IMG/VR virus record: IMGVR_UViG_3300043568_000424
Location: 1 to 21,223 of that record
DNA: 21,223 bases
Direction: 5' to 3' (one strand)
DNA from: a virus
The notes under the pieces were generated by a model. That model had not been told where the DNA came from. It was given only the letters and a program-made list of their open reading frames with translations, and ran no database searches. The number at the start of each line of letters is the position of its first letter. The stretch's first letter is position 1. Both the position numbers and the translations under genes were made by a program. Shown in pieces: positions 12,591 through 21,116 of the stretch.

Positions 12591-13544
12591 TTAGCCCATC
12601 ATTATCTCTGCTGGAAGCACATTTGTGTTTATCAAACCTTCTTCTAATTCCTTCATCTCTTCCGCAGCTTCTTGCATTATTCTGACACCATCAAGTGTAA
12701 CACCACCTGGCATCTGAATTCCTGCAAACTTGCTTAGGTTACTTCCCCACTGATATTTGATCTTTGCCGTTGCATATTGCTTCAAGAATCTATCGTTCCA
12801 CACATCGGAGAAGCCTGGGCGCGTCAATGTGGCTCCAGTTGCTGTTGCTGCAAATTGAGACTGAACGTTTAGTGACGCTGCTCCTGCAATAGAAACAATT
12901 TTCTTAGCCTCACCATTGATAATGATTTCATCATCAACAGATAGTTCACTGTTGAATGATGTGCCTGTTCCTATGACTGTGTTTGATGCTGCTGTAACAG
13001 ACACAGTGCCTGTTGAAATTCTAGAGTCTGGCTCTATTCTACGATAGCACTCAACAATAACCCAGCTACCAACATTAACATCTCTTGTCCAATCAATGTC
13101 GAGATACAGTCTATTCATTTTGCGATTGAATCTGACTTGTGGTGTTCCTGAGAACAATAGATTCAGTGTACGAATGTGTTGCATGGTAATTTCATATGAC
13201 ACATAAGACACGGAAGTAAAGTCATACAGATCATGCAATCTGAGTTGATATCTCAAGTCAAACATGTTGACTGATGAGTTTGACTGGTCAAAAGGCAAAA
13301 TTCCTGTCACAAAGTTGACTGCATCTGGGCAGAAAATGTATCTTCTGTCCATGTCCTCTTGCGTGATCTGATATTTCAAATACATTTGTTCCATGCCATC
13401 ATAGTGATAGTCATGATAGAATGCTAATGCATCGTCAACTCGGTCATCCAATTGATCGTCATCTATGTTGATTTGAATAACTGGATGACCAAGTCTGCGT
13501 AAGCAGTATTCTTTGAATTCAGTTCTTGTTCTAGGTGTTGCCAT
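12591..13544 (-). CDS. 13: Neck protein gp13
   Basis: Partner of gp14 in closing the packaged head. The 317-aa protein (T4 309 aa) shows the family's opening TRTEFKEYCLRRLGHPVIQI with DDRVDDALAFYHDYHYDG, then YLKYQITQEDMDRRYI, and later NDRFLKQYATAKIKYQWGSN with KFAGIQMPGGVTLDG. A Thr/Val/Ser/Gly-rich module at residues 177-243 (TGTVSVTAASNTVIGTGTSF onward) interrupts the conserved sequence and looks like an inserted small beta domain. The ribosome site is poor; only TGGG lies near the ATG. A perfect late promoter is 26 nt upstream and starts the neck-terminase block. Confidence 0.94.
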   Translation of the reverse strand: MATPRTRTEFKEYCLRRLGHPVIQINIDDDQLDDRVDDALAFYHDYHYDGMEQMYLKYQITQEDMDRRYIFCPDAVNFVTGILPFDQSNSSVNMFDLRYQLRLHDLYDFTSVSYVSYEITMQHIRTLNLLFSGTPQVRFNRKMNRLYLDIDWTRDVNVGSWVIVECYRRIEPDSRISTGTVSVTAASNTVIGTGTSFNSELSVDDEIIINGEAKKIVSIAGAASLNVQSQFAATATGATLTRPGFSDVWNDRFLKQYATAKIKYQWGSNLSKFAGIQMPGGVTLDGVRIMQEAAEEMKELEEGLINTNVLPAEIMMG

Positions 13545-13569: not shown

Positions 13570-13577
13570 TATTTATA
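13570..13577 (-). promoter_or_regulatory. T4-type late promoter upstream of gene 13
   Basis: The minus strand reads a perfect TATAAATA that contains the TAA stop of the upstream glycosyltransferase-methyltransferase gene. It lies 26 nt before the gene 13 ATG and should drive the block 13-14-15-16-17. It marks the boundary between the accessory island and the conserved virion genes. Motif seen directly; function inferred. Confidence 0.75.
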
Positions 13578-14844
13578 TCTTTAGTGGACCAGGTAATCTT
13601 GGCATACCGTCTTTGATCGCAACTAACCATGCGTCTGTGACACAAACATTCATATTTTTTAACCATTCGTTGGGAAAATACGTCTGTCTGCGATATTCTT
13701 GGAAGCGGATCTTCTTATTATCTATGAAATTTGCGAGATATGCGTCTGTGTAATATAGAAAACAGTTTTCATTCCAGTAGCTAACGTGTGTTGGATCCTG
13801 AAATGCGCCTCTTCCGTCGGTGCTAGGAACTTGAATGAATGCCCAACCACCTGGTGCCAAAACCCTATGTATTTCAGCCATAATTTTATTCTTATCATGT
13901 AAGTGTTCTAGTATGTGGCTGGCATTCAATACACCAACTGTGTTGTCTGGAAGTGGTATACCATCATTCAGATCATGAACAATATCTGCATCTTTACGCA
14001 AATCAATCGACATGTAGTTTGCATAAGGATTTAATCCACCACCAATATCAACGCACAACAAATTTCTATCTTTAGCATCTTTCTCAGCTAATTTTTGAGC
14101 ATATTGTGCGTGTAGCTCTTTAGTTTTTTCTTGTATCTCAGCATTTCTTTTGTTTATGGATGTATTGTTTCCTGTTATTCTGTAAATATACAGTGGCTCA
14201 GGAATCAAATGCATTTTAGTTGTCAAGTATGTTCTGATACACAATTCATGATCTTCACATACAAACATATCTGGATTATATCCACCAATCTCTTCATAGT
14301 GTGATCTTCTCCATGTTCTTACATGATCAGGTGAATACCAAATATACGATAGTGCTTGACTAGATGGACTAAACGAATCCATAACAATAAGTTCTTTGTC
14401 TTTCCATGTGAACGATTTGTGTGTCCATCCATGTGTGCTGTCGTATGGAATAAAATTCTTTTGCATATCCCACATCGCACAATTACTGTATACAAATCCA
14501 ATATCATCATCTTGATATGCCGTATTTAATTTTTCCAAACAAGTTGACACCAACATATCATCGTGATCCAATTCAACAAGAACATCTCCTGTTCCTAAAG
14601 AGAACGCAGCTTTCTTGATTGCACCTAAGTTTGGTGTATCGATATATGCATGATACACTTTGACTTTTGGATGTTCCTTGATTATCTTTGGCACAAGTTG
14701 TGGCAAAAATTTATTGTTTATAAACAGTATCCATTCCCAATTTACATAAGTTTGCGCACACAAACTTTCAAATGTTTCTAGAAGGAAAGGAATATTGTCT
14801 GGATCGTGTGTTGGTGTGATGACACTGAATTTCAAGTTGTTCAT
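13573..14844 (-). CDS. Two-domain GT2 glycosyltransferase-methyltransferase fusion
   Basis: Predicted bifunctional enzyme, 423 aa. Residues 1-225 are a GT-A (family 2) glycosyltransferase. The opening FSVITPTHDPDNIPFLLETFESLCAQTYVNWEWILFINN is the nucleotide-binding start, DHDD at 93-96 is the metal/nucleotide-sugar site, and CEDHELCIRTY near 196-206 is the catalytic acid region. A charged linker follows (about 235-258). Residues 260-410 are a class I SAM-dependent methyltransferase (Methyltransf_11-like): VDIGGG at 265-270, acidic SIDLRKDADIVHDL, HILEHL at 310-315 and LAPGGWAFIQVP at 329-340. It could add a sugar and methylate it, or cap a glycan. Acceptor and donor are unknown. The gene starts 4 nt after the stop of the preceding island gene, and its own stop lies in the gene 13 promoter. 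Confidence 0.9.
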   Translation of the reverse strand: MNNLKFSVITPTHDPDNIPFLLETFESLCAQTYVNWEWILFINNKFLPQLVPKIIKEHPKVKVYHAYIDTPNLGAIKKAAFSLGTGDVLVELDHDDMLVSTCLEKLNTAYQDDDIGFVYSNCAMWDMQKNFIPYDSTHGWTHKSFTWKDKELIVMDSFSPSSQALSYIWYSPDHVRTWRRSHYEEIGGYNPDMFVCEDHELCIRTYLTTKMHLIPEPLYIYRITGNNTSINKRNAEIQEKTKELHAQYAQKLAEKDAKDRNLLCVDIGGGLNPYANYMSIDLRKDADIVHDLNDGIPLPDNTVGVLNASHILEHLHDKNKIMAEIHRVLAPGGWAFIQVPSTDGRGAFQDPTHVSYWNENCFLYYTDAYLANFIDNKKIRFQEYRRQTYFPNEWLKNMNVCVTDAWLVAIKDGMPRLPGPLKI

Positions 14845-14847
14845 GAT

Positions 14848-16572
14848 TCAATCAAAAAAGAATAGGTGGACCAGGCGACCGTCATTGAAGTTCTGTCCAA
14901 AATATTGGCCAGCAGAGTGTATGCATCTCGCGTCCATAATAACGAGTCTATTGTATATATTACCCGCAGAATCGACCACATCAAATTTTGTTGAGTCTAA
15001 AAAACCACCCGTAAATGCACTATCAATATAAGCATCACTTGAATGTCTTACTCCGTTAATTTTTGAACGATGCAATCTTGTGCCGCTCTCTATTGGAGCG
15101 TCCGGCGTTAAATAAATCATCGCGGCCCAAGTTTGGTGATCATAGTGATAAACTTGAGGATCTTTTGCTGTTGTTATTTGAAAACATCCATTTATACCTC
15201 CATCAAATTTGGTAAGTTTCTGACCCATGATGGATTCAAATGCCTCTTTTATTCCTATTGGATGGAAGTGTGTCGTAGTTCTAGAGCCTTTGTAATATCT
15301 CAAATCTTCTTTGAATTCCATTGTTAGTGCATGTTGCCTGATCGAATCTGGATCTTCGTAAAAGTTATCAACTATGAACATTCTTTTGTTGAAGTTTCGA
15401 TTTATGTTAAATGGATTAACTAACATAGGCGCAATTTTTGTATTGTTTTGTTGCATAACAAGATTTAATGCTTCATTGTGTAGATTTTGAATTCTATTGC
15501 CGCCATCATGATACAAACTTTTATCGATATAGTTCATGTACTTCGGAAAAGGATTGGTTCTCTCAGGCTGCATCATGATGGTGGTATACTTCAACATTTC
15601 TTCAAATTTATCGGTATACTTATATTTCTCCGCTAAGAGATATAGATGATCATTTCTTTCTGGCGCAAATTGTCCAGCCAACTGATAACATTCTATAGCA
15701 GCATCTCTTTGCGATAAAAACCAATTCGCATCACCCATTAGTAGCAGTGTTAAATATGCTGTCTCATCTATACACAATGCTTTTTTTGTATTTGCAAAAT
15801 TGTGAGTGTGGTTTAGATATTCCTGGAAGTAGTAAATTGTTCTTCTAGCGTATTCTTGCTTCAGGGATTCACCTAGCGGAAAAGCATTACTGTGATATGA
15901 ATCATTGTAACTTTTACCAATATACCAGAAATGATACATGTCGGACAACATTGTGTTTTCACGGATCATCTTTTCCTCAAGAATTAGTGCATCACTAATA
16001 AATTTTGTAGGTACTGACCAGCTTTGTCCTTCAGTAGATCCAACTTGCCTAAACGATAATGGTAAATTAAATCTATTGAATGCTGCACCTATGCCTTCAA
16101 TCTCACAATAGCTGGTTTCATGACATGGGTCGTGATTAAAACGCCACGGCATATTTGCGTTCCACATCCACGCTCTATAGTACACACAATTATTTTGAAC
16201 TGCTGGTATGTGAAATGAATGTTGTGTCTTATCATCAAGTAAAGACCAATCAAAATCATCGTCCACTTCCAGAGTTTCATCACAGTCCATTTTCAAAATC
16301 CAATCGCATCCATGATTGATGCTTTGGCAAGTTCGCGTCAAGTGATCTCTGTTCCATCCAAATCCTACCCAGCCCTCTTCAACTTGATAGTAATAGCCTG
16401 GAATTTTCTTTTCTTCAAAAAAATCTTTAACTATTTTATCTGTGCCGTCAGTTGATCCATTGTCTTGCACTACCCAAAAATCTATATGTTTGTAACAAGA
16501 TTCAAGCATTCTCCTAACAACAGAAGCCTCATTCTTAAACATAGTCGTCATTACAATTTTACATTTTTTCAT
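14848..16572 (-). CDS. GT2 glycosyltransferase fused to helical repeats and a 2OG-Fe(II) oxygenase-like domain
   Basis: A 574-aa multidomain protein. Residues 1-235 are a GT2-type glycosyltransferase: IVMTTMFKNEASVVRRMLES, QDNGSTDGT at 37-44, and DCDET at 96-100 as the DxD metal site. Residues 240-375 are helical and TPR-like (WFLSQRDAAIECYQLAGQFA, DHLYLLAEKYKYTDKFEEML). Residues 390-574 resemble the DUF6445 2-oxoglutarate/Fe(II) oxygenase-like family: MFIVDNFYEDPDSIRQHAL at the start, His476-x-Asp478 in VYHYDHQTWAAMIYLTP, His552 in RCIHSAG, and Arg566 in NDGRLVHLFF. The likely facial triad is thus complete. It may glycosylate and hydroxylate the same target, or act on a glycan intermediate. 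The start overlaps the stop of the neighbouring oxygenase gene (ATGA), so the two are co-expressed. Domain names are firm; substrate is unknown. Confidence 0.87.
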   Translation of the reverse strand: MKKCKIVMTTMFKNEASVVRRMLESCYKHIDFWVVQDNGSTDGTDKIVKDFFEEKKIPGYYYQVEEGWVGFGWNRDHLTRTCQSINHGCDWILKMDCDETLEVDDDFDWSLLDDKTQHSFHIPAVQNNCVYYRAWMWNANMPWRFNHDPCHETSYCEIEGIGAAFNRFNLPLSFRQVGSTEGQSWSVPTKFISDALILEEKMIRENTMLSDMYHFWYIGKSYNDSYHSNAFPLGESLKQEYARRTIYYFQEYLNHTHNFANTKKALCIDETAYLTLLLMGDANWFLSQRDAAIECYQLAGQFAPERNDHLYLLAEKYKYTDKFEEMLKYTTIMMQPERTNPFPKYMNYIDKSLYHDGGNRIQNLHNEALNLVMQQNNTKIAPMLVNPFNINRNFNKRMFIVDNFYEDPDSIRQHALTMEFKEDLRYYKGSRTTTHFHPIGIKEAFESIMGQKLTKFDGGINGCFQITTAKDPQVYHYDHQTWAAMIYLTPDAPIESGTRLHRSKINGVRHSSDAYIDSAFTGGFLDSTKFDVVDSAGNIYNRLVIMDARCIHSAGQYFGQNFNDGRLVHLFFFD

Positions 16573-17276
16573 ATAGCTCTCTGCTCAATAAGTTTCATAA
16601 TTTCAGGATTACTTTTTTGTTCCTCAGTTGGTGCAAATAATGCACGACCTCGTTTAGCCGCATTTTCTGACGGCTCACAAAGATAGTACATTGCGATGCT
16701 CTTACGATAAACATCTTCTGGGCAGTTTATCGGCTGTGAAAACCCATGCCATGAATTATAGGTTGTATCAAAAATTACCGCGCGATTGAATTTGTTTTCT
16801 ACAGTTTTTATCAACTCTTTTGGTTGATTCGTTTCTGAATTATGTGACCACATCTCAAGATTACCACCCCATTTTGTGTTCCAGTTTGGTGTGAGATAGA
16901 ATATAAAGTTGAATCTGCGTTCAAGGCCTAACTTAGGATGAATGGAATAGTCTAAGTGTACATTCAGTTTGCCGCCAGTTGGTTGAATATGCCAGCCCGC
17001 GCCGTGTAGTCCGTGATCTGGTATAAGTTGTACACCTGTCATGTCTGATAGACTTTGTACAAACGCTGGTGAATTCAGATACTGAAAAAACTTATATGTT
17101 TCTTCGGGAAAATTGTACCAGTTGTTACTTGTTTTCTTTATCTCAATTTCATTGCCATAACTAAACCACTGCTCAGAGTCAAAGCTCATGAATTCATTTG
17201 ACAATTTGTGAGCAATTTCATCATCTACAAAATTATCTATTACATAATGTGGGTAAGGATCATTATAAAATTCCAT
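16569..17276 (-). CDS. 2OG-Fe(II) oxygenase (prolyl 4-hydroxylase-like)
   Basis: A 235-aa stand-alone 2-oxoglutarate- and iron-dependent dioxygenase of the P4Hc/2OG-FeII_Oxy type. It probably hydroxylates an amino-acid side chain or a sugar. The double-stranded beta-helix signatures are present: opening PYPHYVIDNFVDDEIAHKLS; His107-x-Asp109 in KLNVHLDYSIHP; FNFIFYLTPNWNTKWGGNLEMW; distal His177 in NSWHGFSQP; and Arg191 in YRKSIAMYYL, which would hold 2-oxoglutarate. All metal and cosubstrate residues appear intact. The closing 35 residues are charged. Its stop overlaps the start of the GT2-oxygenase fusion (ATGA). Such oxygenases are common in aquatic T4-like phages, often near tail-fibre or glycan genes; targets are not established. 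Confidence 0.9.
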   Translation of the reverse strand: MEFYNDPYPHYVIDNFVDDEIAHKLSNEFMSFDSEQWFSYGNEIEIKKTSNNWYNFPEETYKFFQYLNSPAFVQSLSDMTGVQLIPDHGLHGAGWHIQPTGGKLNVHLDYSIHPKLGLERRFNFIFYLTPNWNTKWGGNLEMWSHNSETNQPKELIKTVENKFNRAVIFDTTYNSWHGFSQPINCPEDVYRKSIAMYYLCEPSENAAKRGRALFAPTEEQKSNPEIMKLIEQRAI

Positions 17277-17308: not shown

Positions 17309-18166
17309 TCACTCAATTCCCATTTCCTTGCGAATTTTAGTTGCTGAAATTGAATGTACTTCTTCGGTAAAAACTTCTTGTTCTATCTTATAGCCAACGT
17401 CCCGACCATATGTAATATTTACGATATTAGGAACAACTTGAATTTCATATTGACCTTGATATACAGGATCCAAATCTCTTCGAATATAGTTCTTAACTTG
17501 CTCGATTGCAAATGGATTTGATCCGTTCCAACCTTGACAATCTCTAATCTGTATAACTACTTGTCCAGTCTTCATGATTGCTCTGTCAAACAATGCTCTG
17601 TGTCCTGGATGCCATGGTTGCCAACGACCTAGCATCTGCACAGTTTCTTTTTGCCAATCGAATCTTGGTCTGCGGCGATTTTCTAAAATGTGATTGCCGA
17701 TAAGCTCAACCCATTTTTCTGCGTTCTGTTCAGTAACTCTAAAGTCATAAACATCAGGCGGAACAAATGCTTTATTCGTATCATCATATCTGCCTGCATC
17801 AATTGTGTCCATCCAAATTGTCCAATCTGCTTTAAAATTGTGACGCATTTCTGGTAGAGGTGCAACAAAATCGCAAATAACGAAATCACCAGTACACCTC
17901 ATTGCAAATTCGAACATTCTTATACTTTGACGAATTCGACCTTCACGACTGAAATCCCAATCATTAAATCTTTTTCGCACTTCATCCGCATTAAACCAAT
18001 CTACAGAAACTTTTAGTGTTGTATGATCTGGAATACCCTCATAATTTAATAGTTTATCTGGATTTACTTTAAAAAGATCGCCGTTATCTTCGAGATATTT
18101 TTTAAGTTTTTCTGCGAGATATGTTTTTCCCGAACCAGGAAGACCCATTACTAGAATTTTTTTCAT
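17309..18166 (-). CDS. APS-kinase-like P-loop kinase fused to a HxGH nucleotidyltransferase
   Basis: A 285-aa two-domain protein. Residues 1-165 resemble adenylylsulfate (APS) kinase, which phosphorylates APS to the sulfate donor PAPS: P-loop GLPGSGKT at 8-15, FNADEVRKRFNDWDFSREGR at 58-77 (the family's D-x-x-R and FSR-x-x-R pattern), VICDFVAPLPEMR at 96-108, and DTNKAFVPPDVYDFRV at 129-144. Residues 27-55 are an unusual insert after the P-loop helix. Residues 176-285 are a small adenylyl/cytidylyltransferase of NadM-like shape: GRWQPWHPGH with HPGH at 186-189, NITYGRDVGYKIEQ, and ISATKIRK at 273-280. The second domain is too short for a complete ATP sulfurylase. The gene overlaps the nucleotidyltransferase-cupin gene by 4 nt (ATGA) and lies near a sulfotransferase. 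The kinase substrate is inferred; a sugar or other small molecule remains possible. Confidence 0.82.
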   Translation of the reverse strand: MKKILVMGLPGSGKTYLAEKLKKYLEDNGDLFKVNPDKLLNYEGIPDHTTLKVSVDWFNADEVRKRFNDWDFSREGRIRQSIRMFEFAMRCTGDFVICDFVAPLPEMRHNFKADWTIWMDTIDAGRYDDTNKAFVPPDVYDFRVTEQNAEKWVELIGNHILENRRRPRFDWQKETVQMLGRWQPWHPGHRALFDRAIMKTGQVVIQIRDCQGWNGSNPFAIEQVKNYIRRDLDPVYQGQYEIQVVPNIVNITYGRDVGYKIEQEVFTEEVHSISATKIRKEMGIE

Positions 18167-18924
18167 AATCTTACGATGTCCTTTTCTTCACATAATTTAC
18201 CATATTGAATTTCAATGATGCACAGCTTTTCGTCCGTATCTGCTTTGATCATGTGCCATTGACCAACTGAAACATGATGTGTTTCATGCTTATATATAGT
18301 CTTCAGTTTCATGATGTTTTCACCGTCTATTGTGTATATTGTTCCTGCACCAGATTCGATGAACCAAAATTCATTTCTTCTCAAGTGATATTGCATCGAA
18401 ATTGATTTACCGGGTTCGATCACCAATCTTTTGACCTTTGACTCTTTGGTGTCATAGTAGGTCTTTGAATCTCCCCAAATTCTTTTTTCAGTTGATTGAT
18501 TCCAATCATACAATAAAGAACTGGAACTATTTTTTTTATTTTGGCCGCCTATACCGAATTGAAATGATACTCTGGGGTGGTCACGAAAAACTTCCAGTTC
18601 GGGAATATTTCCTTCTGTTCTGTCGCCGCCATTGACAAAAATAATTTTGTTTTTAGGAAACAAATTCATAACCTGTCGAATGGCATCCGATGCTGTGTCA
18701 TCTGAGTCATCAAAATCAATTACACATAAAATGTCTTTAAACTCATCGAGAACGGCTTTACGCTCTTCGAAAGTTAAAAATGACTTACCTTTTTTACGTG
18801 CAAGCCATTCGTCCGAGTTTAAACCGATTACGACTCTACCCAGTTTTCTTGCTTCTTTAATGCAAGAAATGTGTCCACTGTGAATTGGATCAAAACCACC
18901 TGTAAAAATAACAATATTGTCCAT
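18163..18924 (-). CDS. HldE-like nucleotidyltransferase fused to a cupin (type II PMI-like) domain
   Basis: A 253-aa fusion. Residues 1-140 are a cytidylyltransferase-like nucleotidyltransferase related to the HldE/RfaE C-terminal domain and glycerol-3-phosphate cytidylyltransferases: FTGGFDPIHSGH with HSGH at 15-18, VVIGLNSDEWLARKKGKSF, and FVNGGDRTEGNIPELE. Such enzymes join a sugar- or polyol-phosphate to a nucleotide. Residues 158-253 are a cupin like the C-terminal part of type II mannose-6-phosphate isomerase: KRLVIEPGKSISMQYHLRRN with His180 and Glu185, GAGTIYTIDGE, then HHVSVGQWHMIKA with His224. It ends CEEKDIVRL, typical of that domain. It probably supplies an activated sugar for the island's glycosyltransferases. 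The 4-nt overlap with the kinase gene implies coupled expression. The exact sugar cannot be told. Confidence 0.88.
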   Translation of the reverse strand: MDNIVIFTGGFDPIHSGHISCIKEARKLGRVVIGLNSDEWLARKKGKSFLTFEERKAVLDEFKDILCVIDFDDSDDTASDAIRQVMNLFPKNKIIFVNGGDRTEGNIPELEVFRDHPRVSFQFGIGGQNKKNSSSSLLYDWNQSTEKRIWGDSKTYYDTKESKVKRLVIEPGKSISMQYHLRRNEFWFIESGAGTIYTIDGENIMKLKTIYKHETHHVSVGQWHMIKADTDEKLCIIEIQYGKLCEEKDIVRL

Positions 18925-18939
18925 AATATAAATCAGTTT

Positions 18940-19224
18940 TTAAACTGTGTTTTCGTCCGCAGGCCAAATATCTTCGGCAAGTTTTGCTTCACCAGTTGTA
19001 ATTGCTGCGGTGAGGTCAGCAATATCTTCACCAGAATCGATTATTTCCTGATCGGCAACAACCAGCTTTAGATGTGAAACGTTACGATCAATATTTCCTT
19101 TGGCATTTTTGTTTGGTGTTCCGCCGGCATTCAGTTTTTCGATTTCATCTGTAATGACCCAAACGCTGTCTCTAGCGGATCGAATAGTGCCTCGAATTTG
19201 TTCGATTGTGCGTGGTGTTTCCAT
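18940..19224 (-). CDS. Small hypothetical protein, helical
   Basis: A 94-aa protein of unknown function, without signal peptide, membrane segment or cysteines. It looks helical: TIEQIRGTIRSARDSVWVIT, then a short Gly/Asn/Lys-rich turn, SHLKLVVADQEIIDSGEDIA, and an Ala/Thr-rich end. The pattern of two amphipathic helices resembles small proteins found near tail or glycan genes in aquatic T4-like phages, but I cannot name it. The start has a ribosome site (ATAGGAG) and lies 2 nt after the sulfotransferase stop. A TATAAATA promoter motif is 89 nt upstream, inside the sulfotransferase gene. Confidence 0.7.
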   Translation of the reverse strand: METPRTIEQIRGTIRSARDSVWVITDEIEKLNAGGTPNKNAKGNIDRNVSHLKLVVADQEIIDSGEDIADLTAAITTGEAKLAEDIWPADENTV

Positions 19225-19226
19225 TT

Positions 19227-20195
19227 TTATGCTCCTATTAGTTTTTCATTATTTGTTGATGAGTTATTATCAACATCATCCGTTACAGATTCTTGATATG
19301 TTGTATCGCCGGTATTTATATCTTCTTCAATTGATCTCCAAAATTCAGAACCTTCACAGGCTTTAAGTATTGATTCTGGAAGAATTTCTTCTGGATTAAT
19401 TCCCGATTTTCCTACCGATTTGCGAATGTCGTGCATGTCTGAAAATCCATAAACTTCAGCATCATTTTCTTTATGCACATTTTCTAAATTTTCATAATCG
19501 TGTGCTTCGTAATATTCTTCACCAAGGAATTCATATAACTTTCGCATAGTTGCTTCAGTATTTGTAACTAGGTCCTCGTACTCCACAAAATGAAGGTTCT
19601 TTTGTTTGCCTTCCATCAATGCTTGTTTGAGACCAGTATAGCTCTGTCCAACAATTCCCATTTCGGACATAAGTAGTTGGCAACGATTTTCATCAGTGAG
19701 TGAAATATTCGACTTTACTAGCATCTCATCGAGAAAGTTTATTTTACCATTCACCTCATAAGGATTTCTCTTGTGCATTGCGATGAATGAAGATAAGATT
19801 TCAGAGGTGTTTCTTACTGGGCAAATAATTTTAGCTTCACGGCCGAAGTATCCTGGAATATAATGAATACGGTTGACCCATGACCGATTTTTGTCAAAGA
19901 TTACCGGCTTCTCAACATCACTATAATAGTGTTTAATCACATTTGCGATAATTTGTCCAGCTTGTTCATTTTTTGGAAATGCTCGGAAAAGTTCATCTTG
20001 AGATATTTGTTGTTCTAACATGATCATCAAACCAGTTACTGGAGAACTGGGACCAGAATAAAATCGTGGATTTTGATTCAAAATCGCAGAGAGCATTGTG
20101 CTACCTGAACGAGGTAGTCCTGCCATAAAGTAATAAGTCTTCTCTTGTGTGCGAGCCATTTCTTCACGGATAATTTCTTTAATCATTTCTTTCAT
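19227..20195 (-). CDS. PAPS-dependent sulfotransferase
   Basis: A 322-aa sulfotransferase-family protein, predicted to move a sulfuryl group from PAPS to a carbohydrate, protein tyrosine or other hydroxyl. The 5'-phosphosulfate loop is clear: FMAGLPRSGSTML at 23-35. The 3'-phosphate-binding segment follows at 125-137, CPVRNTSEILSSF, with Arg128 and Ser135 in the expected places. LHFVEYEDLVTNTEATMRKLYEFLGEE is the usual late helix of the family. The last 35 residues are acidic and Asn/Thr/Ser-rich and look disordered. There is no N-terminal membrane anchor, unlike Golgi enzymes. The start at 20195 has an AAAGGA ribosome site; later in-frame Met codons are less likely. It lies between a GT9-like gene and an unknown small gene, two genes from an APS-kinase-like gene that could supply its donor. 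Confidence 0.9.
   Translation of the reverse strand: MKEMIKEIIREEMARTQEKTYYFMAGLPRSGSTMLSAILNQNPRFYSGPSSPVTGLMIMLEQQISQDELFRAFPKNEQAGQIIANVIKHYYSDVEKPVIFDKNRSWVNRIHYIPGYFGREAKIICPVRNTSEILSSFIAMHKRNPYEVNGKINFLDEMLVKSNISLTDENRCQLLMSEMGIVGQSYTGLKQALMEGKQKNLHFVEYEDLVTNTEATMRKLYEFLGEEYYEAHDYENLENVHKENDAEVYGFSDMHDIRKSVGKSGINPEEILPESILKACEGSEFWRSIEEDINTGDTTYQESVTDDVDNNSSTNNEKLIGA
19313..19320 (-). promoter_or_regulatory. Possible internal late promoter in the sulfotransferase gene
   Basis: A perfect TATAAATA on the minus strand within the sulfotransferase C-terminal coding region (codons for DINTG), 89 nt before the 94-aa gene start. It could start a transcript for the 94-aa gene and the genes after it. 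Because it lies in coding DNA of an AT-rich genome, a chance match is possible. Confidence 0.4.
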
Positions 20196-20210
20196 TTCAC
20201 ATTGTCCTTT

Positions 20211-21116
20211 TCATTGTTTATCAACAGAATCTATGATCTTATTTATGTCGTATAGTTGAGTTGTTTCTGTGTATGGATACTCAACCTCATTCCCATTGAA
20301 ATCGAAGTCAAACAAATAGCTCCCTGGAAGTTTAAAATCATAAGGAACATCTGTTGTAATATTGTCGTGCAAGTCATAGCCGAATACTTTGGGACTTGTT
20401 CCGTTCCACAATACGGTAGACTTGCGATTCATTGCCGCAGCCGCATGTTGTAAACAGGAATCAATTAAGATCCTTTTTTTCGCATGAAGTAAAACACTAA
20501 AAAATTCCATAAGGCTGAGAACTTTTGTTGGTGTTCCATAGATGTGTTCTGCGCCGATCAACTTTACCGAATTCATTTTAGTTACTTGATAGATATGATA
20601 ATCATTCTTGTAGTGATCAACCAATTTTTGAGCAACATCTTCTGGCATATCACGGGTCCAAGAATGTGATTTTGCATCTGGTGACATTGGACCACCATTT
20701 GTCTGTATCAACATTATCGGTTTCTTACGATTCCAAAATTGTTTTGATACATCAAACTGGAGTTTATTAAATTTTAGCTCAGGCTTCTCACCTGAATAGG
20801 CGAGTCCATACAACTCACACCAGTTTGGTATAAGTGATTTTCTCTTATGAATATGATTCGTGGTATAGTAAGGCTCATGATGAAAAATTATCGAATCTTT
20901 TTCATGAATGTATTCTTGGTAAAAATATTGTGTTGCACCTATTTGATACACTCTATCAACGAACGGAAGGTTAATGAATATGTCTGTATATGCACAAACA
21001 ATAATCAGTTTACGATCTGGGTGGTTGTTTTTAATTGCTCTTGCAACTGCGGTTGCGGCGATATGTTTACCAATTCCACCTTGAATGTGAAATATACTGT
21101 ATTTTTGGTTGCTCAT
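20211..21116 (-). CDS. GT9-like (heptosyltransferase-type) glycosyltransferase
   Basis: A 301-aa GT-B-fold protein like the ADP-heptose:LPS heptosyltransferase group (GT9). The N-terminal SIFHIQGGIGKHIAATAVAR, with a Gly-rich loop and AIKNNHPDRKLIIVCAYTDIFINLPFVDRVYQIG, is the acceptor-domain opening. The C-terminal half holds LLHAKKRILIDSCLQHAAAAM, the donor-binding D-S-x-x-x-H-A-A pattern, followed by KSTVLWNGTSPKVFGYDLHDNI. It would transfer a sugar to a glycan or virion acceptor. HldE-like donor chemistry occurs downstream in the same island, but whether the donor is a heptose is not shown. The ATG overlaps the TGA of the upstream partial gene (ATGA). A CATAAATA motif lies near its 3' end. 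Confidence 0.85.
   Translation of the reverse strand: MSNQKYSIFHIQGGIGKHIAATAVARAIKNNHPDRKLIIVCAYTDIFINLPFVDRVYQIGATQYFYQEYIHEKDSIIFHHEPYYTTNHIHKRKSLIPNWCELYGLAYSGEKPELKFNKLQFDVSKQFWNRKKPIMLIQTNGGPMSPDAKSHSWTRDMPEDVAQKLVDHYKNDYHIYQVTKMNSVKLIGAEHIYGTPTKVLSLMEFFSVLLHAKKRILIDSCLQHAAAAMNRKSTVLWNGTSPKVFGYDLHDNITTDVPYDFKLPGSYLFDFDFNGNEVEYPYTETTQLYDINKIIDSVDKQ
20240..20247 (-). promoter_or_regulatory. Weak candidate late promoter before the sulfotransferase
   Basis: The minus strand reads CATAAATA, an exact match to the relaxed NATAAATA form, inside the GT9-like coding end (DINKI codons) and 44 nt before the sulfotransferase ATG. The short gap between these genes holds no other signal. A chance occurrence in AT-rich coding sequence is quite possible. 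Confidence 0.3.

What the first reader, a model, noticed from the sequence alone, without database searches (positions are those of the whole stretch)
14848..16572. Single protein joining a GT2 glycosyltransferase, helical repeats and a DUF6445-like oxygenase
The three parts are in one frame without interruption, and the oxygenase triad (His476-x-Asp478, His552) plus Arg566 appears intact. A glycosyltransferase tethered to a hydroxylase recalls hydroxylation followed by glycosylation of the new hydroxyl, as on hydroxylysine or hydroxyproline. The repeat region could hold a protein substrate.
Basis: partly seen in the sequence, partly recalled or inferred. Interest (0 to 1): 0.6.

Follow-up and report, generated by a model that had tools for sequence, protein, structure and literature searches.

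The report
Phage hydroxylase-glycosyltransferase beside collagen-like tail fibres
A T4-like aquatic phage carries one protein that joins a sugar-transferring enzyme to an iron-dependent, prolyl-hydroxylase-like enzyme, and in most related phages the gene sits beside collagen-like tail-fibre genes, which suggests that these phages hydroxylate and glycosylate their own fibres much as animals and mimivirus modify collagen.

Summary
Window 14848-16572 (minus strand) encodes one 574-aa protein: GT2 glycosyltransferase, TPR-like helical repeats, then a DUF6445 domain with an intact HxD...H...R motif. It is not an isolated chimera. More than 80 IMG/VR contigs carry the same fusion, and in 31 others the two halves are adjacent separate genes. 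The catalytic residues are invariant. The predicted GT-TPR part resembles the peptide glycosyltransferases SunS and ThuS; the DUF6445 part resembles prolyl hydroxylases (OGFOD1, PHD2, bacterial P4H).

In relatives the gene lies in a cassette [1-3 collagen-like (Gly-X-Y)n tail-fibre genes] - [one or two more 2OG oxygenases] - [this enzyme] - [GT2-methyltransferase] - gp13. Anchored on gp13, phages with the enzyme have a collagen-like gene in 9 of 9 dereplicated cases, against 7 of 44 without it. Best reading: a modifier of the phage's own collagen-like fibres. It works like LH3 or mimivirus L230, from unrelated domains. Lysine is almost absent from the repeats, so proline or threonine is the likelier target.

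This window shows no collagen gene itself; its contig ends upstream. All function is inferred.

The parts
14848..16572 (-). 574-aa fusion protein: GT2 glycosyltransferase, TPR-like repeats, DUF6445 oxygenase
   Evidence: ORF and translation; Pfam/PHROG; 25-sequence alignment; AlphaFold model
16015..16572 (-). GT-A type GT2 glycosyltransferase domain (about residues 1-186)
   Evidence: PF00535 E 2e-7; folds with the TPR part like SunS/ThuS
16279..16287 (-). DxD motif, D96-C97-D98 (donor/metal binding in GT-A enzymes)
   Evidence: invariant in 25 homologues; codons checked
15445..16014 (-). TPR-like helical-repeat domain (about residues 187-376)
   Evidence: family profile vs TPR structures E 5e-9; helices in the model
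15388..15444 (-). flexible linker (residues 377-395, pLDDT under 50); near the gene boundary in split homologues
   Evidence: split genes in 31 loci
14851..15387 (-). DUF6445 Fe(II)/2-oxoglutarate-type double-stranded beta-helix domain (about residues 396-574)
   Evidence: phrog_1644 E 2e-25; domain model pLDDT 92.6; fold matches OGFOD1, PHD2, P4H Z 13-14
15139..15147 (-). iron ligands His476-x-Asp478
   Evidence: invariant; codons checked
14917..14919 (-). distal iron ligand His552
   Evidence: invariant
14875..14877 (-). Arg566, presumed 2-oxoglutarate-binding
   Evidence: invariant
16569..17276 (-). second 2OG-Fe(II) oxygenase (PF13640), overlapping the fusion gene's start by 4 nt; belongs to the same cassette in relatives
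   Evidence: PF13640 E 4e-16; overlap and conserved neighbour c4; HxD present
13573..14844 (-). GT2 + methyltransferase protein, in 85 of 87 loci with the fusion family
   Evidence: Pfam; neighbourhood
12591..13544 (-). gp13-like head-tail adaptor, downstream boundary of the cassette
   Evidence: phrog_211 E 6e-41

Best explanation
This is a phage enzyme, encoded in the structural module, that modifies the phage's own fibre proteins, most likely the collagen-like Gly-X-Y tail fibres encoded next to it in relatives. The C-terminal DUF6445 domain is an Fe(II)/2-oxoglutarate oxygenase of prolyl-hydroxylase type (fold and ligands shown by prediction; activity inferred). The N-terminal GT2-TPR unit is a SunS-like glycosyltransferase that takes a peptide acceptor (fold shown by prediction; acceptor inferred). 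Joining them lets one protein hydroxylate the repeats, probably at proline, and place a sugar on the new hydroxyl or on nearby threonine. The partner GT2-methyltransferase, and the extra methyltransferase or unassigned 230-aa modules fused in some relatives, would extend and cap the glycan. The decorated fibre would be stabilised or shielded, or have altered host binding.
For: Invariant HxD...H...R and DxD. GT-TPR matches SunS/ThuS peptide S-glycosyltransferases best: Foldseek E 5e-14; VIA Z 17, 278 residues, 4.4 A. DUF6445 alone, pLDDT 92.6, matches OGFOD1, Trichoplax PHD, PHD2, P. putida P4H: Z 13-14, about 146-160 residues, 2.5-3.0 A. Flanking genes c7 are Pfam Collagen (E 1e-57) plus S74 chaperone, 1-3 tandem copies. 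Anchored on gp13: enzyme present 21/22 with collagen, absent 9/78; dereplicated 9/9 vs 7/44, p 2.6e-6; 5.4 same way and 0 opposite of 7 independent pairs on a gp13 tree, median p 0.03. Unfused counterpart: collagen fibre - 2OG oxygenase - stand-alone DUF6445 - stand-alone GT2 - gp13 in L122 and L181. 31 loci have split adjacent GT-TPR and DUF6445 genes. Synechococcus phage DSL-LC02 has a DUF6445 gene near collagen-like genes. The 95%-identical relative L033 has a collagen-like gene 757 nt upstream of the enzyme.
Against: The window has no Gly-X-Y gene; its upstream side holds sugar-nucleotide and sulfotransferase genes and the record ends. 12 of 51 loci with at least 3 kb upstream show no collagen-like gene in the flank. 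Linked inheritance at one locus could raise the association. GT2 enzymes of similar fold act on polysaccharides (TarS, TarP, WrtF also match). Small-molecule oxygenases such as SnoN (Z 13.4) match DUF6445 about as well as prolyl hydroxylases, so fold does not fix the substrate. The orientation of the two halves is not confidently predicted (pTM 0.56). No biochemical or mass-spectrometric data exist.
Confidence: 0.5

Rival explanations
1. The protein helps remodel the host surface glycan (LPS O-chain) or builds a free polysaccharide, as published for glycosyltransferases in the host-recognition island of pelagimyophages; the oxygenase oxidises a sugar.
For: The same island in pelagimyophages was read this way (PMC7029224). 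Neighbouring window genes look like sugar-nucleotide, sulfotransferase and GT9 enzymes. The GT2 fold also matches polysaccharide enzymes TarS, TarP and WrtF.
Against: The best fold match over the whole GT-TPR part is a peptide GT. The strong link to collagen-like fibre genes is not expected for host-surface remodelling. The genes sit within the structural module next to gp13.
Confidence: 0.25
2. The halves act on the same fibre but at different residues: the oxygenase makes hydroxyproline for fibre stability, and the GT independently glycosylates Thr/Ser as in Bacillus BclA.
For: Thr is 15% of Y positions and about 50% in the unfused-type phages; glycosylation of BclA is known (PMC8968730). 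Two further 2OG oxygenases in the cassette could act alone.
Against: Fusion of exactly these two activities, and their adjacency when split, more simply suggest consecutive steps; this is not proof.
Confidence: 0.15
3. The DUF6445 domain is a structural or binding module carried in the virion (PHROG calls the family 'minor coat protein') without catalysis.
For: PHROG 1644 and RefSeq label it minor coat protein.
Against: All four predicted ligands are invariant even at 33-37% identity, and the domain model has the full oxygenase fold. I found no experimental basis for the label.
Confidence: 0.07

Closest known systems
Mimivirus L230 (collagen lysyl hydroxylase - glucosyltransferase) and animal LH3/PLOD3
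   Same: One chain with a glycosyltransferase and a C-terminal Fe(II)/2OG hydroxylase carrying HxD...H...R; collagen-like proteins encoded by the same virus (PMC5802723, PMC9546862). LH3 appears among Foldseek matches (E 5.5e-7).
   Different: No detectable sequence relation in PDB searches. The GT is GT2 with TPR repeats; the oxygenase is DUF6445; and the neighbouring collagen has almost no Lys, so hydroxylysine is unlikely. Host is a bacterium.
SunS/ThuS glycocin S-glycosyltransferases
   Same: GT2 domain plus helical domain; best fold match over residues 1-324 (Z 17).
   Different: About 14% identity; no fused oxygenase; their substrates are small bacteriocin peptides, mainly with Cys acceptors (own knowledge).
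OGFOD1, PHD2 and bacterial prolyl 4-hydroxylases
   Same: Fold and ligand pattern of the DUF6445 domain (Z 13-14).
   Different: Under 20% identity; DUF6445 is its own Pfam family; no tested substrate.
PBCV-1 prolyl 4-hydroxylase
   Same: A viral prolyl hydroxylase acting on viral proteins (Eriksson 1999, cited in PMC9301287).
   Different: Alone, not joined to a glycosyltransferase; virus of a eukaryotic alga.

Membership tests
GT2 glycosyltransferases (PF00535) | score above the curated Pfam cut-off | tested here: met
   31.6 bits vs 23.3
GT2 glycosyltransferases (PF00535) | conserved DxD motif | tested here: met
   D96-C97-D98 invariant in 25 homologues
DUF6445 (PF20043) | score above the curated Pfam cut-off | tested here: inconclusive
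   window protein 23.4 vs 24 bits; most close relatives and stand-alone homologues pass, up to 48.1 bits
Fe(II)/2OG-dependent oxygenases | double-stranded beta-helix fold with HxD...H and a basic 2OG-binding residue | tested here: met
   domain model pLDDT 92.6, Z 13-14 to solved oxygenases; ligands invariant
Fe(II)/2OG-dependent oxygenases | Fe(II)- and 2OG-dependent turnover | not testable with these tools
   needs purified protein
Lysyl hydroxylase (PLOD/LH, including L230) | sequence membership in the LH family | tested here: not met
   no LH chain in the sequence searches of all PDB chains at E up to 1
Lysyl hydroxylase (PLOD/LH, including L230) | acts on Lys of collagen-like repeats | tested here: inconclusive
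   candidate substrate repeats hold about 0% Lys at X and Y; no enzyme assay
SunS-type peptide S-glycosyltransferases | GT-A plus helical domain fold | tested here: met
   Z 17.1, 278 residues, 4.4 A
SunS-type peptide S-glycosyltransferases | glycosylates Cys (or Ser/Thr) of a glycocin precursor peptide | not tested
   acceptor unknown; no glycocin precursor was searched for

The most novel reading that the evidence does not exclude
A widespread lineage of T4-like phages carries a dedicated collagen-modification cassette, in which a single-chain prolyl-type hydroxylase/peptide glycosyltransferase decorates collagen-like tail fibres. It would be a bacterial-virus counterpart, built from unrelated domains, of animal LH3 and mimivirus L230, and would make hydroxyproline-linked or hydroxyproline-adjacent glycans on virions.
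Probability: 0.35. Interest if true: 0.85.

Novelty: new variant of a known kind. Interest (0 to 1): 0.62.

Why it matters
Collagen hydroxylation coupled to glycosylation is regarded as an animal trait shared with a few giant viruses, and a review of prokaryotic collagens (PMC8968730) says most bacterial collagen-like proteins are not hydroxylated or glycosylated. A phage cassette that does both would show a second origin of the idea, give a job to an unstudied oxygenase family (no paper in the library searched mentions DUF6445), and offer a reason why aquatic phages carry so many 2OG oxygenases and glycosyltransferases next to tail-fibre genes. Fibre glycosylation would also bear on host range and on shielding of the virion.

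Tried and rejected
Bacterial origin: no relative in one genome-contig scan. Chance fusion or frameshift artefact: rejected, since the fusion is in more than 80 contigs. N-terminal extension of relatives as the neighbouring 2OG oxygenase: rejected; it is a methyltransferase (PF13578) or a 230-aa domain without a Pfam match. Hydroxylysine route: disfavoured by about 0% Lys. Proline enrichment in enzyme-associated collagens (27.7% vs 8.1% at X) points to proline, but the control is small and heterogeneous (L270 and L271 are Pro-rich without the enzyme), so I give it little weight. The second oxygenase c5 against collagen was weaker on the tree (median p 0.125). Promoter and terminator scans gave no more than shuffles. 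Literature: no paper found on DUF6445; Luther 2011 on L230 is not held.

Full report
Observation. Window 14848-16572 on the minus strand is one open frame of 574 aa. Pfam finds GT2 at residues 12-103 and a sub-threshold DUF6445 match; PHROG 1644 covers 392-574 at E 2e-25. The window is the structural module of a T4-like phage: major head protein, protease, portal, tube, sheath, terminase, sheath stabiliser, head closure and gp13-like adaptor, all on the minus strand. The record is a 21,223-base virus contig that ends at the window's edge.

How common the fusion is. A first scan of IMG/VR gave 27 loci, nearly all carrying the whole fusion at 48-95% identity. A profile scan gave 307 relatives, of which the 80 kept match essentially the whole query. 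One scan of bacterial and archaeal genomes found none. In 25 aligned full-length sequences D96, D98, H476, D478, H552 and R566 never vary. Across DUF6445 domains down to 33-37% identity the four oxygenase residues still never vary.

Modularity. Some relatives add an N-terminal methyltransferase (PF13578), a 230-aa domain with no Pfam match, or both in either order, giving proteins of up to about 1020 aa. In 60 loci from a DUF6445-anchored scan, 19 have the fusion, 31 have a GT-TPR gene immediately next to a stand-alone DUF6445 gene, often overlapping by 4 nt, and 10 show no adjacent GT. Cyanophages instead join TPR and an FkbM-like methyltransferase to DUF6445 (S-SCSM2R), or encode an FkbM-radical SAM protein beside a separate DUF6445 gene (DSL-LC02). 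So GT-TPR and DUF6445 are partners, fused or not.

Structure. The full model has mean pLDDT 81 and pTM 0.56, so domains are credible but their arrangement is not. Residues 1-324 match SunS and ThuS, glycosyltransferases of small peptides, best (Foldseek E 5e-14; Z 17, 278 residues, 4.4 A), ahead of polysaccharide GT2 enzymes. DUF6445 alone gives pLDDT 92.6 and pTM 0.87. Its best matches are OGFOD1, Trichoplax and human HIF prolyl hydroxylases, a Shewanella oxygenase and P. putida P4H at Z 13-14, with 2.5-3.0 A over about 146-160 residues; small-molecule oxygenases such as SnoN score about as well. This supports an Fe(II)/2OG oxygenase and leans towards peptidyl substrates without proving them.

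Neighbourhood. In 87 loci the order is usually collagen-like fibre genes (one to three), a 2OG oxygenase (c5), a second 2OG oxygenase (c4, the window's 16569-17276), the fusion, a GT2-methyltransferase (85 of 87 loci), then gp13, gp14, gp15 and the terminase genes. The fibre genes are Pfam Collagen at E 1e-57 with a C-terminal S74 chaperone. Among loci with at least 3 kb upstream, 39 of 51 show a collagen-like ORF. In the window itself the space upstream of c4 is taken by other carbohydrate-type genes and no Gly-X-Y run exists in any frame, but the 95%-identical relative L033 has a collagen-like gene 757 nt upstream of the enzyme.

Control. To ask whether collagen-like genes are simply common at this site, I gathered loci by gp13 instead of the enzyme. 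With at least 6 kb upstream, 21 of 22 loci with the full fusion have a collagen-like gene and 9 of 78 without it do; after 90% dereplication on gp13, 9 of 9 vs 7 of 44, Fisher p 2.6e-6. On a gp13 tree, of 7 independent pairs differing in the enzyme, collagen goes the same way in 5.4 on average and the opposite way in 0, median p 0.03. Two gp13 lineages with collagen but no fusion (L122, L181) carry the unfused set: collagen fibre, 2OG oxygenase, stand-alone DUF6445, stand-alone GT2, then gp13. Two caveats: genes at one locus can travel together, and gp13-anchored sets favour relatives of the three query gp13 proteins.

Which residue. Over 11,476 triplets the X position is 26% Pro, 25% Ala and 18% Val; Y is 56% Gln, 15% Thr and 6% Pro; Lys is about 0% at both. 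Hydroxylysine is therefore unlikely. Proline at X or Y and threonine at Y are the candidates. B. anthracis P4H can hydroxylate both X and Y prolines in (PPG)n, and BclA is glycosylated (PMC8968730).

Known work. Mimivirus L230 and human LH3 couple a hydroxylase and a glycosyltransferase in one chain on collagen (PMC5802723, PMC9546862). Viral P4H genes were noted in aquatic viromes with the remark that collagen can be part of tail fibres and that their use remains cryptic (PMC9301287). Phage proteins resembling human EGLN3 are frequent in marine phages (PMC12774648). GTs in the corresponding island of pelagimyophages were attributed to host O-chain modification (PMC7029224). I found no description of this fusion or of DUF6445 function.

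Verdict. Shown: the fusion, its conservation, intact predicted active sites, the split and alternative architectures, and the association with collagen-like fibres. Inferred: catalysis, substrate, order of steps, and the role of the glycan.

Noticed in passing
17309-21116 (-): Upstream of the oxygenase the window carries a kinase/nucleotidyltransferase-like protein, a cytidylyltransferase-cupin fusion (CTP_transf_like + MannoseP_isomer), a 94-aa ORF, a sulfotransferase and a GT9-like protein, suggesting an unusual, possibly sulfated glycan.
   Followed up: partly
L063:2915-3628, also L059, L084, L087, L091, L105: A 230-aa N-terminal domain (MKIAIFYHLAQL...HSKG) with no Pfam match is fused to the enzyme family in several phages, before or after a methyltransferase; it may be an undescribed glycosyltransferase.
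   Followed up: partly
L002:5827-7980 and L001:6813-8678: Synechococcus phages DSL-LC02 and S-SCSM2R carry FkbM-type methyltransferase proteins (one with radical SAM and SPASM domains) next to a GH130-like gene and DUF6445.
   Followed up: no
13570-13577 (-): TATAAATA, the T4 late-promoter motif, lies just upstream of gp13; 3 in the window vs 1.26 expected, not significant.
   Followed up: no
L351, L352, L353, L354, L361, L379, L380: Some phages carry two DUF6445 genes near the GT-TPR gene.
   Followed up: no
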